Origin: JBBIPZ01 sp037442505 [NCBI: Deltaproteobacteria bacterium]
Lineage (GTDB): Bacteria > CALINM01
DNA: 14,639 nt
Reading direction: 5' to 3'
Assembly (NCBI GenBank): GCA_037442505.1
Contig: JBBIPZ010000008.1
Span: 1-14,639, forward strand
Of the stretch, positions 998 to 10,867 are shown in pieces. Under the pieces are notes generated by a model. The model ran no database searches. It worked only from the letters and a program-made list of their open reading frames with translations, and was not told where the DNA came from. The first letter of the stretch is position 1, and each line of letters opens with the position of its first letter. The position numbers and the translations under genes are program-made.

Positions 998-2590
998 TCA
1001 TATTTTAAACTGTTTTATAAGTTCGCTTAACCGAGTAGCAAGCTGAGCTAAGGATGAAGAGGATTGTAACACTTGTTCGGAAGCAGACGAAGATTCGCGA
1101 GCAATATTTGCAATTGTCTCTACATCATTGCTTATTTGTTCTGATACACTCGACATTTCCTCAGTTGCTGTAGCAATTTGTTGAACCATGCCTGATAATT
1201 CTTCCACACTGGCAACTATTTTTTCAAGAGCTTCTTTTGTTTTATTAGCATATTGAACACCAACTTCTACTCTTTTGGTCCCTTCTTCCATAGATACCAC
1301 TGCTTTATCAACTTCGCTTTGAATAGATCCTATCATCTCCCCTATTTCTGATGTTGCTTTACCCGTCCTTTCTGCAAGTTTTCTTACTTCGTCAGCAACT
1401 ACTGCAAAACCTCTTCCCTGCTCTCCTGCGCGAGCCGCTTCAATGGCAGCATTGAGTGCAAGAAGGTTTGTCTGGTCTGCTATATCCTTTATAACATTTA
1501 CAATGTCACCAATTTGCTTTGACTTTTCCCCAAGCATCTCAACTATTTTTGCAGAATTGTTGACAGTTTCTGCAATCTGGGAAACCTCCTTGGTAGATTG
1601 ATTGACTACTTCACCACCATTCTTAGCTAATTTCATAGACTGAAAAGCTAAATTGGCTATGTTTGAAGCATTTTTTGCTATATCTATTATTGTCTGAGAC
1701 ATTTCAGCAGAAGCAGTTGCTATCTGCTGTGCTCTACCTGACTGTTCCACTATTCCTTTAGACATCTGCTCTGAAGAAGCTGAGAGTTCTTCACTTGCAG
1801 ATGCGATCTGGGCAGCACTATCTTTTACTTCCCTTATCATTTCTTTTAATTTACCACACATCTTTTTAAGTTCTACTGCCATTTTACCAATTTCATCTTT
1901 ACTTGTTAGATTAAATTCACAGTTCAGATCACCTTCTGATGCTTTTTCAACATTGGAATTTATTTTATTAATCCCTCTCTCTATTGGTTTTACAATAAAA
2001 AGGATGGGCAAAATACCAAAGATAATAATCAAAGCAATATATAAAACCGAAGATATCCAAAGAAGTCTATGCTGAGAGTCATCTATTTGTTTTCCTTTAT
2101 TTACAATAAGCTTTTTAACTGATAGCCTCATCTCTGTCAAGGCTTCCTGAGTCTGGTGCAGGTATGGTTTTGTTTCTTCTTCATAGATTCTCTTTGCAAG
2201 CTCAATATTACCAGCCTTCATTGCCTCTAAAATTTTTGGGGCAGTGGCATGAAACTTTTTATGAGGCTCTTCTATCTTTTTAAAGCTTTCTTCTAACTCC
2301 TTAGGTGGTTTGTAACTATAATACCATTCACCTAATCCACATTTTGTATGGTCTATCTGCCCATTAAAACCTTTATTTAAAAAAATGCCATTAACAACGA
2401 GATCTTCTAACCATTTGTAGTGGTCAATAGTCTTTGTTCCTAATAATGCTTGTAATTCAGGATATTCAACGAGTTCATCAACATCGTCTGCTGTATGTTT
2501 CGTAGTAAAATAGCTATAAATACCTAACATTAACAAAATTATCACAATGGATATACTCATAAAATAAAGTTTTGATTTAATTGTTTTCAT
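998..2590 (-). CDS. Methyl-accepting chemotaxis protein with an extracytoplasmic CZB-like zinc-binding domain
   Basis: This is a 530-residue transmembrane chemoreceptor that controls CheA through CheW. Membrane segments lie at about 8-28 and 177-200, with a sensor domain between them. HAMP follows at about 198-250, then the signalling hairpin, whose tip sits near residue 390 in [19 protein letters not shown]. The arms are about 140 residues each, roughly 20 heptads, which suggests the 40H class. Typical methylation-type pairs appear in SASEELSAS and ATATEEMSS. The sensor segment carries the chemoreceptor zinc-binding pattern: His57-x2-Trp60, Cys84-x-Leu-Gly-x-Trp89, and His110-x3-His114, a 3His/1Cys ligand set. 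CZB domains are better known in the cytoplasm, so this location stands out. The C-terminus (KQFKI) has no CheR/CheB-tethering pentapeptide of the NWETF type. The gene lies between cheW and cheB; its ribosome site is a G7 run at 2605-2599. The MCP call is secure; the ligand is unknown. Confidence 0.96.
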
Positions 2591-2598
2591 CTTTTCTA

Positions 2599-2612
2599 CC
2601 CCCCCTTTTTTT
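2599..2612 (-). repeat. A7-G7 homopolymer tract forming the ribosome-binding region of the MCP gene
   Basis: On the minus strand seven A (2612-2606) are followed by seven G (2605-2599), then eight bases to the MCP start ATG at 2590. The first two A belong to the cheW stop codon TAA. There is no AGGAGG, so the G run itself must serve as the Shine-Dalgarno sequence. Homopolymers in this position can change length by slippage and so alter translation. That is an inference; only the tract itself is seen. Confidence 0.7.
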
Positions 2613-3099
2613 AAGAAATTTCTGTTAAAGCCTTTTGTTCATTTTCTGCAAGCAGTTTATCCATCTCAAGCAGTATAATCAGCCTGTTATTAACCTCAGC
2701 AATACCTTTTATAAACTCTGATGATACTGTTGTGGCTATTGATGGTGCTGGTTTAACTAAATCATCTGGTATTCTTAAAACTTCAGACACAGAATCAACT
2801 ATTAACCCTATAATTATTGAGCATACTTCCATGATCATAATTCTAGACTGTTCGTTATATTCCTTAACAGGCAAATTGAATCTTTTACGCAAGTTTATAA
2901 CTGGAATAACTTTTCCTCTCAAGTTAATAACTCCTTCTATATAACCAGGAGAATTGGGAATACGTGTTATTTCTTTCATTCTGTTAATTTCTTGAACCTT
3001 TAAAATATCTACAGCAAACTCTTCATCTTCGAGTGTAAACGTAACTAACTGCAACGTTTCATTTTGTTTTTTTTCGTTTATCACTGTCAAGTTTTCCAT
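2611..3099 (-). CDS. cheW: Chemotaxis coupling protein CheW
   Basis: CheW links chemoreceptors to the kinase CheA in the cytoplasmic array. The product is 162 residues, the usual size for a stand-alone CheW, and the whole protein is one CheW domain. Visible signatures are [20 protein letters not shown] near the start, the conserved [19 protein letters not shown] core (the NLRG arginine is a known receptor/CheA contact in the family), and [20 protein letters not shown] near the end. The start is placed at ATG 3099 rather than the in-frame ATG at 3105, because GGAGG at 3110-3106 abuts the upstream ATG but lies 6 bases from the downstream one. The gene sits between the cheW-cheZ fusion (42 bases upstream) and an MCP. 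The operon thus encodes two CheW domains besides the CheW-like regulatory domain of CheA, and this CheW may compete with the fusion for array sites. Confidence 0.96.
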
Positions 3100-3110
3100 A
3101 CCCATCCTCC
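3100..3110 (-). promoter_or_regulatory. Ribosome-binding site deciding the cheW start
   Basis: GGAGG at 3110-3106 is followed directly by an in-frame ATG (3105-3103) and, 6 bases further on, by a second ATG (3099-3097). Normal spacing favours the second ATG, so the protein probably begins MENLTV rather than MGMENLTV. Confidence 0.75.
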
Positions 3111-3141: not shown

Positions 3142-4320
3142 CTAAAAACCAAACTCCTTAAGTAAATCATCTACATCAGATTGAGACACTTTCACTGAAA
3201 CCTTTTCTATTTTTTGAGTATCAGTATCTACTTTGAGTCCAAAGGTAGCAATCAGCTTAACTAACTCTTCTTCTAAATCGCCCACCAGACTTATAACCTT
3301 TTTAATTGTTTGTCCTGTTATATCCTGAAAAGACTGAGTTGTGAGTATTTCAGCCAGGTCATCTTCTAATTGATTTTTAAACTTTTTGAGATATTCAGCA
3401 GAATTTTCAGGAAAACTGATAGCCCTTATATGGTTTGCTAAAGTGTCCATCTCTAAAATGTATTTTTCAACCACACCCATAGTTTTATTGGCAGCCTCCT
3501 CTGTCTTACTTATTACAAGCTGAAGCTGGTCTATGGCTCTCGGCATATCATTCGTCGCCATAACTTTTAATTTTGGGTCTATAGCTTCTTTAAAACTTTT
3601 TAGAGAATTGTGGAGCTTCCTTGTAACCTTTCCCACTTCATTGAATAGCTCACTCTGTCCTTTAGCAACTATACTTTTTATTAGCTCTTCAGCCTTTTCA
3701 TAATCCTGTTCTGCAATGGCATTCATAAAGCTTACTATATCATCAACCATATGGTATCTGGGGTCCGTTTCACTTATTCCTCTTTTCTCGAAAAAGTCTC
3801 TGGCAGACATTATCTCTTTAACAACTGTTGTCCCCCCCATACCTTCTGTCTTTTTTGCCACTTCCACTATCTCACCTTTTTCCTGGTATTCAATAATCTC
3901 GTCTTCAAAAAATTTTGCATCATTTTCAGAAATTAGCTTTTGTGTATCAAGCATAATCAACAACTTTTCTTCAACCTTTGCTATACCAGATACAAGTTTA
4001 TTTGGATTAAAATCCTTTGGTTGTTCTATCTCCTTATCTTCAATAGATATAACACCAGTAATACTATCGACAAGTATGCCAAAGTTAGCCCGGCCTGAAG
4101 ATATAACAACAACTTTTGTACCTTCTGTAAGATCGTTTATATTTAAAAGCCTTTTTAGTTCTATTACAGGGATTATTTTGCCCCTTAAATTTGTTACTCC
4201 TTTAACATAGGTGGGAGCTTGAGGAAGTTTGGTTATATTTGGGATATTTATTATTTCTTGCACTTTCAATATGGGAACTGTATACTCATTGTTATTTAAC
4301 TTAAAACCTATAAACTGCAT
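3142..4320 (-). CDS. CheW-CheZ fusion: array coupling domain joined to CheY-P phosphatase
   Basis: This is a 392-residue protein with two recognisable halves. Residues 1-135 are a full CheW domain: FIGFKLNNNEYTVPILKVQE, GVTNLRGKIIPVIELKRLL, and a closing LVSGIAKVEEKLLIMLD. Residues about 136-170 are a charged linker with a Gly-Gly from a G7 run at 3838-3832. Residues about 170-392 are CheZ-like and mostly helical. They include MPRAIDQLQLVISKTEEAA, the catalytic-type motif FQDITGQTIKKV with Asp333 and Gln337 in the spacing of E. coli Asp143/Gln147, and the extreme C-terminus SQSDVDDLLKEFGF, resembling E. coli CheZ's CheY-binding tail. CheZ accelerates hydrolysis of CheY-P. Here the phosphatase should be anchored to the receptor-CheA array through CheW. 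GGAGG at 4332-4328, 7 bases from ATG 4320, supports the start. The gene follows cheA and precedes cheW. The frame is continuous, with no sign of a broken junction. Both domain calls are strong; the localisation is inference. Confidence 0.93.
   Translation of the reverse strand: MQFIGFKLNNNEYTVPILKVQEIINIPNITKLPQAPTYVKGVTNLRGKIIPVIELKRLLNINDLTEGTKVVVISSGRANFGILVDSITGVISIEDKEIEQPKDFNPNKLVSGIAKVEEKLLIMLDTQKLISENDAKFFEDEIIEYQEKGEIVEVAKKTEGMGGTTVVKEIMSARDFFEKRGISETDPRYHMVDDIVSFMNAIAEQDYEKAEELIKSIVAKGQSELFNEVGKVTRKLHNSLKSFKEAIDPKLKVMATNDMPRAIDQLQLVISKTEEAANKTMGVVEKYILEMDTLANHIRAISFPENSAEYLKKFKNQLEDDLAEILTTQSFQDITGQTIKKVISLVGDLEEELVKLIATFGLKVDTDTQKIEKVSVKVSQSDVDDLLKEFGF
3832..3838 (-). repeat. G7 run in the CheW-CheZ linker
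   Basis: Seven consecutive G on the coding strand encode the Gly162-Gly163 step (ATG GGG GGG ACA) of the linker between the two domains. By reading the other frames, one extra G leads to TGT TAA within five codons and one missing G leads to AGA TAA within about eight codons. Either slip would yield a CheW-only protein of about 167-170 residues. The tract and frames are seen; slippage in vivo is inference. Confidence 0.75.
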
Positions 4321-4335
4321 TCATAATCCTCCTTT

Positions 4336-6081
4336 TTAATGTTTTTTGAACATCCATCTCATAAGTATCGCAAGGTCTATGATAAGAACAACCTTACCGT
4401 CACCCCTAATAGTTGCGCCTAAAATCCCACATTGGTCTGCATCCACACCATTTATTGTTTTTATTACAACTTCCTCCTGGCCAAGTAAGCCATTAACAAT
4501 AAGACAAAACTTTTTATCACCAACGGATGCTACGAGAATATAGGAATATAAATTATCAGTGGATTCATCATCAGGAACATTTAATAAATCTTTTAAGTAA
4601 AACAGAGGCAAAACTTTACCCCTAATATTTAAAACCTTTTGCCCTGTTACATCCTTTATTTCAGAAGTTTTAATGCGTAAAGTTTCTTCTATCATAGTCT
4701 GAGGAATTGCATAAACCTCTCTGCCTACCTTTACCATCATAGACTGAATTATTGCCAATGTGAGAGGAAGGCTTATTCTAAAAGTACTACCTATATCTTT
4801 CTTTGAAATAACCTCAACATATCCATTTAATTTTGCAACATTCGTTCTCACCACATCCATTCCAACACCTCTACCGCTTAGTTCTGAAGCAACCTCTTTT
4901 GTGGAAAAACCAGGCAAAAATATTAGATTTATGATATCTTCATCGCTCATTTTTTTTGTTTCTTCATCAGTTATTAATTCTCTTTGAATAGCCTTATTTT
5001 TAACTGCATCAACATCTATACCTTTCCCATCATCAGTTATGTCAATAACTATTTGAGAGCCCTTCTGGTAAGCATTTATTGTTATTTTTCCTTTATGACC
5101 TTTGCCTTTTTTTATCCTTTCCTCAGGTAATTCTATGCCATGGTCTATGGAATTTCTTATTATATGAACAAGAGGATCCGCTATATTTTCAATTACTGTC
5201 TTATCAACCTCTGTATCCTCACCGAATATTTCTAACTCAATCTCTTTGCCAAGAGTTTTCGAGAGATCCCTTACCATTCTTGGAAACTTACTAAAAACCT
5301 TCTGTATGGGCTGCATCCTGATCTTCATAACGGAAAGCTGTAAGTCTGAAGTTACTCTATCAAGAAAACCTGTGGTTTCTAATAGCTGTTCGATATAGTT
5401 TTGAATACTGTCTTTATCAATATTGTTAGAAAGATTTACAAGCCTGTTTCTGATTAAAACTATTTCCCCTGCTAAGTCCATTACTTTATCTATTTTTGAT
5501 ACTTCTACACGCAAGTTTGCCATAACTTCTTTATCTTTATGACTGGTGTCTATTTGAGATATCTGAGAAATAGATTGTTTTTGCTCTACTTCGTTTTTTA
5601 TTTCTTGTTTTTCATCACTCCTTGCAATTGTCTCTTGTTGCCCTTCATTTATAATATTTTGAACATCTTCTACTACCTGAGTTTTCCTATTTTCAGCATC
5701 TTGAAGCGCTAAATCAACATCCTTTAAAAAGATAGATAGCTCTCCAGCGTATTCTCTTTTTTCCCTTATACAACTTATTAGCTCTTTTAAAACATCAACA
5801 CTTTTTAGTACAACATCAATAAGATGCCTTGAAAGAGCTAGTTCACCATCACGTATTTTCTTCATTATGCTTTCTGAACGATGTGCAACATCAACAATAT
5901 TTTGAAAGCCTAAGAAACCAGCAGCTCCCTTAAGGGTATGCATGCTCCTGAAAATCTCGTTGAGAAGCTCTTTATCATCTCCTTTCTTTTCTAACTCAAT
6001 AAAAAGAGGATCGATTTTCTCTAAGGTTTCTTCAGCCTCAGTTATAAACTCATTTACTATTTCTTCCATCTCATCAGACAT
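4336..6081 (-). CDS. cheA: Chemotaxis histidine kinase CheA lacking a P2 domain
   Basis: CheA autophosphorylates under receptor control and passes phosphate to CheY and CheB. The 581-residue protein shows P1/HPt at about 1-105 with phospho-acceptor His48 in FRSMHTLKGAAGFLGF. A Gln/Glu-rich linker follows at about 131-187, then P3 dimerisation at about 188-255 (VDKVMDLAGEIV-like helix, seen as IDKVMDLAGEIVLIRN). The P4 kinase has its N box in HIIRNSIDHGIELPEER, its G1 box in DDGKGID and its G2 box in GRGVGMDVV. P5, a CheW-like domain, covers about 440-581. The 55-60 residue linker is too short for the CheY/CheB-binding P2 domain of E. coli CheA (654 residues), so P2 seems absent. GGAG sits about 8 bases before ATG 6081. 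The gene lies 30 bases downstream of cheY and 15 bases upstream of the cheW-cheZ fusion. Confidence 0.97.
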   Translation of the reverse strand: MSDEMEEIVNEFITEAEETLEKIDPLFIELEKKGDDKELLNEIFRSMHTLKGAAGFLGFQNIVDVAHRSESIMKKIRDGELALSRHLIDVVLKSVDVLKELISCIREKREYAGELSIFLKDVDLALQDAENRKTQVVEDVQNIINEGQQETIARSDEKQEIKNEVEQKQSISQISQIDTSHKDKEVMANLRVEVSKIDKVMDLAGEIVLIRNRLVNLSNNIDKDSIQNYIEQLLETTGFLDRVTSDLQLSVMKIRMQPIQKVFSKFPRMVRDLSKTLGKEIELEIFGEDTEVDKTVIENIADPLVHIIRNSIDHGIELPEERIKKGKGHKGKITINAYQKGSQIVIDITDDGKGIDVDAVKNKAIQRELITDEETKKMSDEDIINLIFLPGFSTKEVASELSGRGVGMDVVRTNVAKLNGYVEVISKKDIGSTFRISLPLTLAIIQSMMVKVGREVYAIPQTMIEETLRIKTSEIKDVTGQKVLNIRGKVLPLFYLKDLLNVPDDESTDNLYSYILVASVGDKKFCLIVNGLLGQEEVVIKTINGVDADQCGILGATIRGDGKVVLIIDLAILMRWMFKKH

Positions 6082-6111: not shown

Positions 6112-6513
6112 TTAATCTCTTAACACGGGCTTTTTTTCAGCCATTTTTTCTAACTTCTCTTTCAAAACTTCAAGGGTAAAAGGCTTTACAATATAGTTAT
6201 CTACTCCCGATTTTATAGCTTCTATTACCTTGTCTTTTTCTGCCTCTGCAGTAACCATGAGAAAAGGTATGTTACATAAAGGTTCGGTCGATTGTCTTAC
6301 CCTTCTTAATAACTCAATGCCCTCCATGTTAGGCATATTCCAATCAGATACTACAAGACTGAACTCACCACTTTGTAATTTACTATATGCCTGCGCACCA
6401 TCTTCTGCTTCCTCGATATTTTTAAACCCAAGCTGATTTAAAAGATTCTTTACAATCCTTCTCATTGTGGGAAAGTCATCTACTACCAATATTTTAATAT
6501 TGTAATTAAACAT
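6112..6513 (-). CDS. cheY: Chemotaxis response regulator CheY (E. coli-like)
   Basis: This is a 133-residue single receiver domain that, when phosphorylated by CheA, should bind the FliM N-terminus and change flagellar rotation. It closely resembles E. coli CheY: VVDDFPTMRRIVKNLL, the phospho-acceptor Asp57 in SDWNMPNMEGIELL, Thr88 in MVTAEAEKD, and Lys110 in VKPFT. Of the two receiver proteins here it is the better candidate for the motor-binding CheY and for the substrate of the CheZ domain. Its ATG shares one base with the preceding stop (TAATG at 6515-6511), and GGAGG(GG) lies about 7 bases upstream inside the previous gene, so the two are probably translationally coupled. cheA follows after 30 bases. 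Confidence 0.95.
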   Translation of the reverse strand: MFNYNIKILVVDDFPTMRRIVKNLLNQLGFKNIEEAEDGAQAYSKLQSGEFSLVVSDWNMPNMEGIELLRRVRQSTEPLCNIPFLMVTAEAEKDKVIEAIKSGVDNYIVKPFTLEVLKEKLEKMAEKKPVLRD

Positions 6514-6902
6514 TAAATTTCCCCTCCTTTTTCGAAAAATTTTTTCAAGATCCTCTTTATAGAATTTGCAACCTGCTCCGCTGTTGTAGGTTTTGTTAAA
6601 TAATCATCAGCACCTGCTTCAAAGGCTTTCTTTTTTTCGTATTCATCTGCTTCAGTTGTAATCATAACAACAGGTATGTTTCTCAATATTTGATTGGACT
6701 TTAAATTTTTTATAAATTCTATGCCATCCATATAGGGCATATTTAAATCAGTTAGGATAAAATTGATGTCTCCTTCCTTAGCAATTTTTTCAAAAGCATC
6801 AAACCCATTTTCCGCAGTTACAACAGTATAGCCCTTTGATTTCATGTATAGACTTAATAATTTTAAGGTGGTCTTATCATCATCTACTATTAAGATCTTC
6901 AT
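6513..6902 (-). CDS. Second CheY-type single-domain response regulator
   Basis: This 129-residue receiver domain has no output domain. The acidic pocket is in MKILIVDDDKTTLKLL, the phospho-acceptor is Asp52 in LTDLNMPYMDGIEFI, Thr82/Thr83 follow in VVMITTEADEYE, and Lys104 lies in YLTKPTT. It is less E. coli-like than the CheY encoded immediately downstream: TDLNMPYMDG instead of SDWNMPNMEG, and TKPTT instead of VKPFT. It may act as a phosphate sink, as a second CheY, or through another target; the sequence does not decide. A GAGGG ribosome site lies about 7 bases before ATG 6902. It is 12 bases downstream of cheR and overlaps cheY by one base. The receiver call is firm; the role is open. Confidence 0.93.
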   Translation of the reverse strand: MKILIVDDDKTTLKLLSLYMKSKGYTVVTAENGFDAFEKIAKEGDINFILTDLNMPYMDGIEFIKNLKSNQILRNIPVVMITTEADEYEKKKAFEAGADDYLTKPTTAEQVANSIKRILKKFFEKGGEI

Positions 6903-6914
6903 AAATTGCCCTCA

Positions 6915-7727
6915 CTATACCTTCTGGTAAGTTACAACTCTGTTTATAATAAAAGGCTTAAAAGCCCTCGTTACATTATGAAGACTCTCCGAAAGACTTA
7001 AAAACAAAAATCCTCCAGTTGCTAAAGAATCATAGAGGTTTGCAACTGCTCTTTGTTTTGCTTTATCATCAAAATAAATTAATACATTGCGACAGAATAA
7101 TATATCTACATTGCATATTTTTCTTGTTTCACTACTTTTTATAAGATTTATGTGATGAAATGCAACCATTTTTTTTATTTGATCACAAATTTGATAAAAC
7201 TGGTTATCTATCTTTTTGAAATACTTTTGCATAAGAGATGTTGGAACATTTCTAACTGAATATGAATTATATATCCCCCTTTTCGCCGATTCAAGAGCCG
7301 CTAATGAAATATCAGAAGCTATAAGTTCAATTGAAGAAGATATTCCACTTTCTAAAAGCAAAATCGCAATTGTATAAATCTCTTCGCCTGTTGAACAGGC
7401 TGCGGACCAAATTTTTATCCTCGTTTTTTTTTGCTTTAGCTGAGAAATAACATTTTGAACACATACGTATAGTTGTTCCTGTTCTCTAAAAAAATATGTT
7501 TCGTTAGTTGTAATCGCATTATAAAGGTTAATAAGTTCACCACTCCCGGAAGAACTTTTTATATAAGACAGATAATCATCAAAACTATCTTTTCTACACT
7601 CTTTAATCCTATTTTGCAACCTATTTTCAATGAAATATTTTTTTGCATCATTTATATATATTCCAGTAAGTTCATAAATATAATCACGAAGTGCCTTAAA
7701 AGTATTGTCACTTAGAACTAAATTCAT
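6915..7727 (-). CDS. cheR: Chemoreceptor glutamate methyltransferase CheR
   Basis: CheR transfers methyl groups from S-adenosylmethionine to receptor glutamates. The 270-residue product has the N-terminal helical CheR domain (about 1-75, with GIYINDAKKYFIENRL). The Rossmann-type methyltransferase domain follows: TTNETYFFRE at 73-82, the SAM-binding motif WSAACSTGEEIYTIAI at about 107-122, an acidic strand end IASDIS at 136-141, and CRNVLIYF at 212-219. Length matches the family. The start ATG (7727-7725) overlaps the TGA of the HEAT-repeat gene (7726-7724) as ATGA, and no good Shine-Dalgarno is visible, so translation probably depends on coupling to that gene. Both MCPs in the window lack a C-terminal tethering pentapeptide, so CheR here probably docks directly at methylation sites. 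Confidence 0.97.
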   Translation of the reverse strand: MNLVLSDNTFKALRDYIYELTGIYINDAKKYFIENRLQNRIKECRKDSFDDYLSYIKSSSGSGELINLYNAITTNETYFFREQEQLYVCVQNVISQLKQKKTRIKIWSAACSTGEEIYTIAILLLESGISSSIELIASDISLAALESAKRGIYNSYSVRNVPTSLMQKYFKKIDNQFYQICDQIKKMVAFHHINLIKSSETRKICNVDILFCRNVLIYFDDKAKQRAVANLYDSLATGGFLFLSLSESLHNVTRAFKPFIINRVVTYQKV

Positions 7728-9145
7728 ACACTTAAAAACCCCAAACGTTTAGCAAATTCTCTGATATATAAAGGGGCATCCTTTAAAAATTCTAAAAGAA
7801 GCTCCTTATCAATATTTTCTAATGCAAAAAAACATTCAGATATAATATCAGCATATTTTTCATGTATAAGAACAGACCAAATAGAATTAAATGCCTCTTT
7901 TTTCCCTATTTTACCAAGACTTGTGATTGCAACTTTTCTTACATGACTATCAGGATCACTTACTCTTTCTAAAAAAACTTTTTGCACTTCTTCTATATAT
8001 GCAACATTAGACAATGCATTTATTGAAGCTCTTCTTATATCCCTTAAATCTTTCTGTAAAATATTAATTAAATGAGGAACTGATTTTTCACACTGCAACT
8101 CACCTACAATCTCAATAGCCAATACCTTCGCTCGAAATTTGTATTTATCGCTGTTTATAACTTCAATAAAAAAATCATTGCATCCACACTGTCTTAATAT
8201 ATCTTTAACAACAAATAAATAGTCTTCATCATAAGGTTCGGTGGGATCAAGAGAACCGGCAATATCTATAATTTTAGGTAAATTGTGTATATACCCAAGA
8301 GAAATTAACCCTTTTATAGCTAATATTTTTTCTTCCCAAACACTTTCTGTTACAATTTCTAACAGGATATCTTCTATACCATTAACTTTTTTTGCAATAT
8401 CATAAAACTCATTTTTAATAACTCCTTTCACAATTTCAGCCTTTTCTATTTCACCAACCTTAAAAAATGAGTCTATAAGTAGCTCAAAACCAGCTTTACT
8501 TCCCATATTGCTTAATGATTCAATAGCAGCAATCCTGATTGATATAAGCGGCGATTCAATAAGTTTTGCTATTTTTGGAACTGATTTTATACTTTTAAAA
8601 AAAGAAAGAGCTTCTAAAGCTGAAAAAACTACCCATTCTTCGTCATCAAGAGCAGATATAAGTTCATCTTCTGCTTTAACAAGTTCAAGAGATTTAATCG
8701 TTTTTGCTGCTGCCCCTCTTACATTTGGATTTGGGTCTTTTCGCAATAGTTGAATTACTTCATCTTCGTAGTCACAATGTCCAATATTAGATATAATATC
8801 AAGTGCAAATTTTCTGATATCGTCATCTTTATCCATCAAAAGAGGTCTTAGAACTTTAACGGCGGCTTCTCTTAATTGTTGGAGAATAATAATTGCAGTG
8901 TTTCTTAAATAAGCTTCCTCTCTTAATAAAGGAAGTAACATGTAAGCAGTAACTTCTCCGCCAATGTTTATAAGAGATCTCATAGCTGCATCTTGGACTC
9001 CAACATTTTCATCCCTCAATGCATTGATGAGGGGATAAATTGCCCTTTCATCTGCATCTGCTAAAGCTTCTGCAGCCGCATGTCTTACAGTTGCGTCTGG
9101 TGATTTCAATTTTTCAAGATACTTTTCTATTGTTGTGGCTTTCAT
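7724..9145 (-). CDS. HEAT-repeat protein, first gene of the chemotaxis operon; function unknown
   Basis: This 473-residue, all-helical protein is built of about ten or more HEAT/PBS-lyase-type repeats. Clear units include SPDATVRHAAAEALAD, NVGVQDAAMRSLINIGG, DDDIRKFALDIISNIG, NPNVRGAAAKTI, DLRDIRRASINALSNV and DPDSHVRKVAITSLGKIG, at a period of about 30 residues. The middle (about 225-330) is more divergent. No signal peptide, membrane segment or catalytic motif is seen, so a cytoplasmic protein-binding scaffold is likely. Its first position in the operon and its 4-base ATGA overlap with cheR tie it to receptor methylation or array assembly, but no function should be assigned. ATG 9145 lacks a ribosome site and lies about one base after the predicted transcription start of the sigma-28-like promoter, pointing to a leaderless message. 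Confidence 0.9.
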   Translation of the reverse strand: MKATTIEKYLEKLKSPDATVRHAAAEALADADERAIYPLINALRDENVGVQDAAMRSLINIGGEVTAYMLLPLLREEAYLRNTAIIILQQLREAAVKVLRPLLMDKDDDIRKFALDIISNIGHCDYEDEVIQLLRKDPNPNVRGAAAKTIKSLELVKAEDELISALDDEEWVVFSALEALSFFKSIKSVPKIAKLIESPLISIRIAAIESLSNMGSKAGFELLIDSFFKVGEIEKAEIVKGVIKNEFYDIAKKVNGIEDILLEIVTESVWEEKILAIKGLISLGYIHNLPKIIDIAGSLDPTEPYDEDYLFVVKDILRQCGCNDFFIEVINSDKYKFRAKVLAIEIVGELQCEKSVPHLINILQKDLRDIRRASINALSNVAYIEEVQKVFLERVSDPDSHVRKVAITSLGKIGKKEAFNSIWSVLIHEKYADIISECFFALENIDKELLLEFLKDAPLYIREFAKRLGFLSV

Positions 9146-9256: not shown

Positions 9257-10867
9257 ATGTTTAAAGGTTTTACTGTCAAAAGGAAGCTTATTTTTGGATT
9301 TGGAACAATTATCACTGTAATGTTATTTTATGGGTTACTATCTATTTTTGGACTGGTAAAAAATTTAAAAAATTTAGAGGATGAAAAACTTCGAATAGAA
9401 AAAATTTTATTAACTCAGCGCATTAACATAGATGTCCAAAAAATACTTTTAAAAGTATCAAAAATTATAGTTGTAAAAGATCCAGAAATTAAAAATGAGA
9501 TTGCACTTCTTAGAACAGATTATAAAGAAGCCTTTGATAAACTAAAAAAAATAACAAAAAAGCAGGAAGGGCTAAAATTGATAGATGATTTAGCTATCCT
9601 TATGAAAGAAACAGCGCCTTATAATGATATGGTAATTAAAAATGCTACTGAAGGAAATGATACGAATACCGCCATGAGTGTGTATGTCGTAGAGGTAGAA
9701 CCAAGATTATCAAAAATAAATAAAGCATTAACAGATCTTGTACAATACCAACAAAAAAGAGTTAATGAAGAAATAAATCAAAAAAAACAAAATAGTAATA
9801 TTATGCTTATAATGACAACTATAGCAATTGCGATTGTTCTTCTTTTTAGTCTTATAATATCATTTTCTATCTATAATTCCATATCAAAACCTATAGCAAA
9901 TCTTAATTATAATTTACAGAAAATTGCAAATGGCGACTTAGTAATGACAATTGATACTTCACGACAAGATGAAATAGGTGAAATTGCTAGAAACTTAGAT
10001 ACAGCAATAAATGCTATTAAAACACTTATCTCCCACGCAAAGAATGCTTCTTTTAATTTATCTTCGAGTGCCGAAGAATTAAGCAGAACTACTGAAGAGA
10101 TCAATAAAAGCATAAAAAACCAGACAGAACGGGCATCTCAAATTGCTACATCTGCAGAAGAAATGACTCAAACAATTACTGACATAGCAAAAAATGCTTC
10201 CAATATAGCTGAAGTTAGCACAAACTCTGCAGGCACAGCTAAGGAAGGCAAAAATAAAGCTTTAAAAACATTAGAAGAGATCAAAAAGATAAAATTAGCT
10301 TCAGAAAAACTTGGTATGATAATCACCAATTTAGGAGAACGTTCAGCCCACATAGGTGAAATTATCGTCGTTATTAAAGATATTGCTGATCAAACAAACT
10401 TGCTTGCACTTAATGCAGCCATAGAAGCAGCGAGAGCTGGAGAACAGGGTAGAGGTTTTGCTGTCGTTGCTGATGAGGTAAGAAAATTGGCTGAAAGGAC
10501 GGGGAAAGCAACTGATGAAATAAGTCAGATGATACAAAATATTCAAAAAGACATTGAAATTGCAATACAATCAATGGATGAAACTGCAAAAAGAGTTGAA
10601 GACGGTGTAATAGATTCTCAAGATACTTCAGCTTCAATAGACATGATTGTTAAGAAAACTGAAGAAGTTAGAGAGATGATACAGCAAATAGCTACTGCAA
10701 CAGAAGAAATGTCTTCTACAACCGAAACAATTTCTCAAGATATTACAAACATTGTAGAGGGCTTGAAAGGAAATAGCCTTGCTACTGAACAGGCTGATCA
10801 AATTGCTTCTAATGTTTCCTCAATGGGACACGATTTACTTACATCTATTGGAAAGTTCAATATATAA
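9257..10867 (+). CDS. Methyl-accepting chemotaxis protein with helical-bundle-type sensor domain
   Basis: This 536-residue transmembrane chemoreceptor has membrane segments at about 11-34 and 182-206, with an extracytoplasmic domain of about 147 residues between them. That domain is predicted helical and charged (for example [19 protein letters not shown]), most like the four-helix-bundle MCP sensor family. No zinc-ligand pattern like that of the other MCP is seen. HAMP covers about 207-258 ([18 protein letters not shown]). The signalling hairpin has its tip near 396 in [12 protein letters not shown] and arms of about 140 residues, the same length class as the MCP at 998-2590, so the two can probably share mixed arrays. 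The tip regions are nearly identical while the sensor domains differ. The C-terminus is GKFNI, without a tethering pentapeptide. It is divergent from the che operon, has its own sigma-28-like promoter and ends just before a hairpin. The ligand is unknown. Confidence 0.96.

What the first reader, a model, noticed from the sequence alone, without database searches (positions are those of the whole stretch)
3142..4320. A CheW-CheZ fusion: the CheY-P phosphatase is built into an array protein
One uninterrupted frame encodes a full CheW domain (1-135) and a full CheZ-like domain (about 170-392) with the Asp333/Gln337 catalytic pair and a CheY-binding-type C-terminus. In E. coli CheZ is a separate protein recruited to receptor clusters by the short form of CheA. 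Here the fusion would hard-wire the phosphatase into the array. CheV (CheW plus receiver) is the well-known CheW fusion; I do not recall a described CheW-CheZ protein, but I cannot search. This is the strongest candidate for something undescribed in the window.
Basis: partly seen in the sequence, partly recalled or inferred. Interest (0 to 1): 0.8.

Follow-up and report, generated by a model that had tools for sequence, protein, structure and literature searches.

The report
Chemotaxis coupling protein joined to phosphatase
As assembled, one bacterial gene joins the CheW array-coupling protein to CheZ, the enzyme that switches off the swimming signal, but the joint sits on a run of seven Gs where a one-base change would leave two ordinary genes.

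Summary
Window 4320-3142 is one 392-codon frame with a CheW domain (2-132, Pfam E 7e-37) and a CheZ domain (Pfam E 1e-30; residues 191-391), catalytic Asp333/Gln337 and a CheY-binding-type C-terminus, inside a che operon. Best reading: an array-anchored CheY-P phosphatase. Its CheZ lacks 21 residues at the hairpin tip, where E. coli CheZ binds CheA-short, so CheW could supply the targeting; but a free alpha-type CheZ is reported short there too. With one G fewer, CheW would stop after residue 169 at a TAA overlapping ATG171, leaving CheW and CheZ of normal size. Twenty-five other runs of 7 or more inside this contig's frames, all A or T, break no frame, so an assembly error is possible but not favoured; a slippable tract is also open. 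No relative with both domains was found, but these searches hardly touched the likely lineage. No paper describing such a fusion was found in the held library.

The parts
3142..4320 (-). CheW-CheZ open reading frame, 392 aa
3925..4317 (-). CheW domain, residues 2-132
   Evidence: Pfam PF01584 E 7.1e-37; 32-38% identity to four other CheW proteins
3751..3924 (-). linker, residues 133-190
   Evidence: residues 136-190 score +0.42 per codon in frame, negative in the five other frames
3832..3838 (-). G7 run in the linker (codons 161-163); a change of one in its length would break the fusion
3808..3812 (-). TAATG: ATG171 preceded by TA; with one G fewer in the run the upstream frame would end at this TAA
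3148..3750 (-). CheZ domain, residues 191-391
3310..3324 (-). catalytic Asp333 to Gln337
3145..3174 (-). C-terminal CheY-binding-type segment VDDLLKEFGF (383-392)
6112..6513 (-). CheY, the probable substrate
   Evidence: 55% and 59% identical to E. coli and P. aeruginosa CheY
4336..6081 (-). CheA kinase
   Evidence: Pfam Hpt, H-kinase_dim, HATPase_c, CheW
2611..3105 (-). separate CheW (164 aa)
   Evidence: Pfam E 2.9e-40; 35% identical to the fused CheW domain

Best explanation
A real single gene encodes CheW joined by a linker of about 58 residues to a CheZ with a short hairpin. Shown by sequence: both domains, the catalytic Asp/Gln pair, the CheY-binding-type C-terminus, and the place in a che operon next to cheA, a CheY close to those of CheZ-bearing bacteria, and a separate cheW. 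Inferred: the CheW domain takes CheW positions in the receptor/CheA array beside the separate CheW, the CheZ parts pair into a four-helix bundle below the array, the C-terminal helix catches CheY-P, and Asp333/Gln337 speed its dephosphorylation. Phosphatase is thus tied to the kinase, which would even out CheY-P through the cell and may sharpen responses, the job that CheA-short does for CheZ in E. coli.
For: Pfam CheW and CheZ far over their cut-offs; CheZ profile 107.4 bits against 6.2 for the best of 200 shuffles; catalytic pair and C-terminus aligned with four free CheZ; linker codon usage favours this frame, and the seven codons between the G run and ATG171 score +0.74 per codon in the fused frame against +0.23 in the +1 frame; AAGGAGG before the fusion's start and only TAAAGAG before the internal ATG171; the 25 other runs of 7 or more inside the 15 frames examined are frame-consistent; the CheY of the locus is 55% and 59% identical to CheY of two CheZ-bearing species. 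Co-localised CheA and CheZ give a sharper response in E. coli (Vaknin and Berg, as told in PMC2673030, passages).
Against: A G7 run in the linker and an overlapping stop/start (TAATG) near where a free CheZ would begin look like traces of two genes; 7 of 89 other internal in-frame ATGs are preceded by TA, but 39 of 89 are followed by A, which would give the other kind of overlap (ATGA) in the same frame, so some such overlap is not rare. No second example of the fusion was found, so conservation of the joint is untested. In a Deferribacterota genome, the phylum of the first-listed plasmid-borne CheA match, cheZ is listed beside cheY (PMC11896075, passage), which may mean a separate gene there. 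PMC2673030 also argues that placement alone does not explain the sharper response. Both structure models were poor (mean pLDDT 35 and 49), so neither fold nor dimer was shown. No functional data.
Confidence: 0.52

Rival explanations
1. Two ordinary overlapping genes, cheW (169 aa) and cheZ (222 aa) joined by TAATG, appear fused because the assembled G run is one base off.
For: One G fewer gives that arrangement; the RR>cheY junction in this operon has the same TAATG overlap; both products would have normal sizes. In alignment A1 the starts of three of the four free CheZ fall about 7-11 residues downstream of ATG171; E. coli's falls later.
Against: The 25 other runs of 7 or more inside the 15 frames examined (all A or T) leave frames intact; weak Shine-Dalgarno (TAAAGAG, 3 nt spacing) before ATG171; codons between the run and ATG171 fit the fused frame slightly better; an overlap of some kind at an internal ATG is not rare by chance (TA before 7 of 89, A after 39 of 89).
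Confidence: 0.26
2. The G7 run is a slippable tract, so cells or mRNAs switch between the fused, array-tethered phosphatase and separate CheW plus CheZ made by coupled translation.
For: The window (33% GC) holds two G/C runs of 7, both in this operon: this one and one in the ribosome-binding region of the MCP at 998-2590; 300 dinucleotide shuffles average 0.17 such runs and 3 of 300 reach two. One-base slippage would give the overlapping pair.
Against: Seven Gs is short for phase variation as I recall it; no length variants or relatives were seen (looked only in viral contigs); two runs in one window is a small sample.
Confidence: 0.13
3. The gene is fused, but an internal start (ATG171) also yields free CheZ, in the way one cheA gene gives CheA-long and CheA-short in E. 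coli.
For: ATG171 lies near where a free CheZ would begin and has a weak TAAAGAG upstream.
Against: The site is poor: the short-motif scan of start codons between residues 121 and 239 flagged none of the ATGs and only GTG152.
Confidence: 0.06
4. The fused CheZ domain is not an active phosphatase but a CheY-P binder or structural part of the array.
For: Divergent: 28-35% identity to free CheZ and a shortened hairpin.
Against: Catalytic Asp333/Gln337 and the surrounding QDxTGQ are intact.
Confidence: 0.03

Closest known systems
CheZ of E. coli and other gammaproteobacteria
   Same: Catalytic Asp/Gln, C-terminal CheY-binding-type segment and first hairpin helix align.
   Different: Free protein; 21 residues longer at the hairpin tip, where E. 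coli CheZ binds CheA-short (PMC7750401 passages).
CheZ of Azorhizobium caulinodans (alpha-proteobacterial type)
   Same: Bundle about 25 residues shorter than E. coli's, longer N-terminal helix, no D(D/E)WF motif (PMC7750401 passages); the fused CheZ also has a short hairpin and no such motif.
   Different: Free, and polar without CheA; here preceded by CheW. Compared from the paper's description, not by my own alignment.
CheV (CheW plus receiver; description recalled)
   Same: CheW domain at the N-terminus followed by a second domain.
   Different: Here the second domain is CheZ; Pfam finds no receiver in this protein.
CheA-CheC/CheX fusions of Leptospirae
   Same: A CheY-P phosphatase built into a core array protein (PMC10542144 passages).
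   Different: Other phosphatase families (CheC/CheX), and CheA rather than CheW.

Membership tests
CheW | CheW-like domain over the Pfam cut-off | tested here: met
   126.5 bits against 23.5, residues 2-132
CheW | Conserved core residues (GVxNLRG and others) | tested here: met
   18 invariant columns across five CheW sequences, among them G41 V42 N44 L45 R46 G47
CheW | Incorporation in receptor/CheA arrays | not testable with these tools
   needs localisation or cryotomography
CheZ | CheZ domain over the Pfam cut-off | tested here: met
   107.3 bits against 30.7; 115.1 for residues 185-392 alone
CheZ | Catalytic Asp and Gln (D143/Q147 of E. coli, numbers recalled) | tested here: met
   D333 and Q337, invariant in 5 of 5
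CheZ | C-terminal CheY-binding helix | tested here: met
   sequence only: VDDLLKEFGF aligned with VDDLLxSLGF
CheZ | Apical hairpin that binds CheA-short (enteric CheZ only) | tested here: not met
   21 residues absent; profile 122-158 against residues 301-316; also lacking in a reported free alpha-type CheZ
CheZ | Dimeric four-helix bundle | tested here: inconclusive
   single-sequence monomer models too poor, mean pLDDT 35 and 49
CheZ | Dephosphorylates CheY-P | not testable with these tools
   needs an assay
CheV | Receiver domain after CheW | tested here: not met
   no Response_reg match in this protein

The most novel reading that the evidence does not exclude
A switchable tether: the G7 run lets slippage toggle the signal-terminating phosphatase between a form built into the receptor array (CheW-CheZ) and free CheZ translated from the overlapping start, so that a lineage can change the place of CheY-P breakdown without changing its enzymes.
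Probability: 0.1. Interest if true: 0.8.

Novelty: new variant of a known kind. Interest (0 to 1): 0.45.

Why it matters
Where CheY-P is destroyed bears on how sharply a bacterium responds (E. coli, PMC2673030, passages). E. coli uses CheA-short, epsilonproteobacteria use ChePep, and the partner that anchors alpha-type CheZ is unknown (PMC7750401, passages). A covalent CheW anchor would be a further and simple solution, and a natural construct for testing phosphatase placement. If the G run varies in length, placement itself could be under slippage control.

Tried and rejected
Considered and rejected: CheV (no receiver); a chance CheZ match from coiled coil (200 shuffles at most 6.2 bits against 107.4; none of the eight other window proteins searched is among the 20 best rows printed); the weak sub-cut-off Pfam match to a clostridial neurotoxin translocation domain (17.5 and 19.2 bits, cut-off 25), taken as helical similarity. 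My first idea (note), that the hairpin tip was lost because CheW replaced it, was weakened: a free alpha-type CheZ is reported to be short too.

Led nowhere: own genome not held. The one genome-contig scan found one Bacillota MAG with a plain CheW. Relatives of that MAG: 11 of 11 genomes matched, the rows listed lying within residues 1-153, the CheW part; CheZ over cut-off in 0 of 119, with 5 of 119 weak matches below it. This says nothing of the window's own lineage. The megaplasmid of Deferribacter desulfuricans has no CheZ match (0 of 1). Viral contigs: none with the fusion, the CheZ alignment or the junction pattern. Plasmids: 285 records match the fusion, none covering 80% of it in one place; 24 match CheZ alone. 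Of those 24 I looked at three: two with an annotated free cheZ and one unannotated, whose open frame holds CheZ alone. Structure predictions were too poor for a fold search, so none was run.

Full report
What is there. The stated coordinates hold one open frame on the minus strand, 4320 to 3142, 392 codons from ATG to stop. The plus strand read from the first base is full of stops. Pfam finds CheW at residues 2-132 (E 7.1e-37) and CheZ (E 1.3e-30, two stretches), both well over the curated cut-offs; a third family is below its cut-off. NCBIfam gives the same two families below its full-length cut-offs, and a third at 15 bits. Among solved structures the best matches are CheW chains, and the E. 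coli CheZ chain 1kmi_Z matches at E 9.3e-7, best stretch 321-359.

The CheZ part. I aligned residues 185-392 with free CheZ from E. coli K-12, Pseudomonas aeruginosa, Aeromonas caviae and Photobacterium toruni: 28-35% identity, with Asp333 and Gln337 in QDITGQ and the C-terminal VDDLLKEFGF lined up with the catalytic and CheY-binding segments. A profile from those four matches 191-301 (profile 14-122) and 316-391 (profile 158-250), 107.4 bits in all; the best of 200 shuffles has 6.2. So the domain is whole except that 35 profile positions are spanned by 14 residues: 21 residues are missing at the hairpin tip. In E. coli that apical tip binds CheA-short (PMC7750401 and PMC1447658, passages). 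PMC7750401 also reports that free CheZ of Azorhizobium has a bundle about 25 residues shorter, and cites work saying that alpha- and delta-proteobacterial CheZ lack the CheA-short-binding sequence. The short tip therefore may mark a CheZ subtype, and is not by itself evidence that CheW replaced it. The AXXFQ motif described there reads TQSFQ here.

The neighbourhood. In reading order on the minus strand: HEAT-repeat protein (9145-7724), cheR, a single receiver (6902-6513), cheY (6513-6112), cheA (6081-4336), this gene, cheW (3105-2611), an MCP (2590-998) and cheB (from 980, cut by the window end; named from its translation). The CheY is 55% and 59% identical to the E. coli and P. aeruginosa CheY; the other receiver is 32% identical to it. 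The separate CheW is 35% identical to the fused CheW domain. Upstream lie flagellar genes, fliN and fliM by Pfam; fliK, flgD and flgE are named from my reading of the translations. The N-terminus of FliM (ILSQDEVDALLSG) resembles the CheZ C-terminus (SQSDVDDLL), as expected if both bind CheY (inference). Among the plasmid records matched by CheA the first listed is from Deferribacter desulfuricans, 45.5% over 98%: a lead on the lineage, not an assignment. A paper on another Deferribacterota species lists cheZ and cheY with neighbouring tags and cheW elsewhere (PMC11896075, passage); whether that cheZ carries CheW is not said.

The joint. This is the weak point. In a contig of 33% GC, the linker carries a G7 run at 3832-3838 (codons 161-163, EGMGGTT). 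With one G fewer the CheW frame ends after residue 169 at a TAA that overlaps ATG171; with one more it ends after 167. In alignment A1 the starts of three of the four free CheZ fall about 7-11 residues downstream of ATG171, and E. coli's falls later, so ATG171 would be a fitting start for a free CheZ. A TAATG overlap also joins the receiver gene to cheY in this operon. Of 89 other internal in-frame ATGs, 7 are preceded by TA, but 39 are followed by A, which would give an ATGA overlap in the same +1 frame; so TAATG is uncommon by chance, while some overlap is not. The assembled sequence is one base from two ordinary genes.

Weighing it. For a true fusion: in-frame codon usage is positive in 15 of 15 blocks of 25 codons (residues 1-375), and residues 136-190 score +0.42 per codon against negative values in the five other frames; two intergenic controls are negative in all six (stops in other frames were scored -5, which lowers those frames). 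The seven codons between the run and ATG171 score +0.74 in the fused frame and +0.23 in the alternative, too few to decide. The 15 frames examined, 13,980 bases summed out of 14,639, hold 26 runs of 7 or more and no internal stop; this run apart, the 25 are A or T, since the only other G/C run of 6 or more lies between genes. That bounds the error rate only loosely, and not for G runs. ATG171 has a weak Shine-Dalgarno at poor spacing. Against: the coincidence of G run, overlap and fitting start. A third reading is a slippable tract: the window has two G/C runs of 7, the other in the ribosome-binding region of the MCP gene, against a shuffle mean of 0.17, and 3 of 300 shuffles reach two. I give about 0.52 to a fixed functional fusion, 0.26 to an artefact, 0.13 to a slippable tract and the rest to variants.

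How it would work. Shown: domains, residues, operon. Inferred: the CheW domain places the protein in the array, two CheZ parts pair below it on linkers of about 58 residues, the C-terminal helix captures CheY-P made by the nearby CheA, and the Asp/Gln pair speeds its hydrolysis. In E. coli, cells with CheA and CheZ co-localised respond more sharply to attractant than cells with dispersed CheZ, although the same paper argues that placement alone does not explain this (PMC2673030, passages). Fold and dimer remain unshown: both predictions, made without an alignment, had mean pLDDT below 50.

Novelty. I searched the held papers for the fusion by several names. One search gave 0 papers. One search gave 17, judged from titles and matched terms in the listing to be labelled CheZ or unrelated; none was opened at that passage. 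Searches (11 listed; 1; 2; 1) were broader; of these I read passages of PMC10542144, PMC9321776, PMC2829493, PMC9665402 and PMC1447658 and saw no CheW-CheZ protein; the others were seen as listings only. Two surveys of CheW architectures and a chemotaxis census that I recall are not held, so a prior listing there or in a domain database cannot be excluded. CheA-CheC/CheX fusions are known (PMC10542144, passages), so a phosphatase built into an array protein has a precedent. No second CheW-CheZ gene was found, but what I could search was poorly suited: one genome scan with close-relative patterns, plasmids, viral contigs, relatives of one Bacillota genome in which 0 of 119 had CheZ over the cut-off, and one Deferribacter megaplasmid without CheZ.

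Noticed in passing
2599-2605: A second G7 run, in the ribosome-binding region just upstream of the MCP gene 998-2590; length changes could tune that receptor's expression.
   Followed up: partly
7724-9145 (-): A protein of HEAT repeats (473 aa) overlaps cheR by four bases in the che operon; its role in chemotaxis is unclear.
   Followed up: no
4336-6081 (-): CheA shows no P2 (CheY-docking) match at E 0.01 between Hpt (to 98) and the dimerisation domain (from 190); HMMER often misses P2 (PMC10542144, passages), so its absence is not settled.
   Followed up: partly
998-2590 (-): MCP with a CZB zinc-binding domain at residues 57-120, apparently between the two membrane segments rather than in the cytoplasmic part (topology by eye).
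   Followed up: no
6513-6902 (-): A second single-domain receiver, 32% identical to the adjacent CheY and joined to it by TAATG.
   Followed up: no
9257-10867 (+): A second MCP on the opposite strand between the che operon and the flagellar genes.
   Followed up: no
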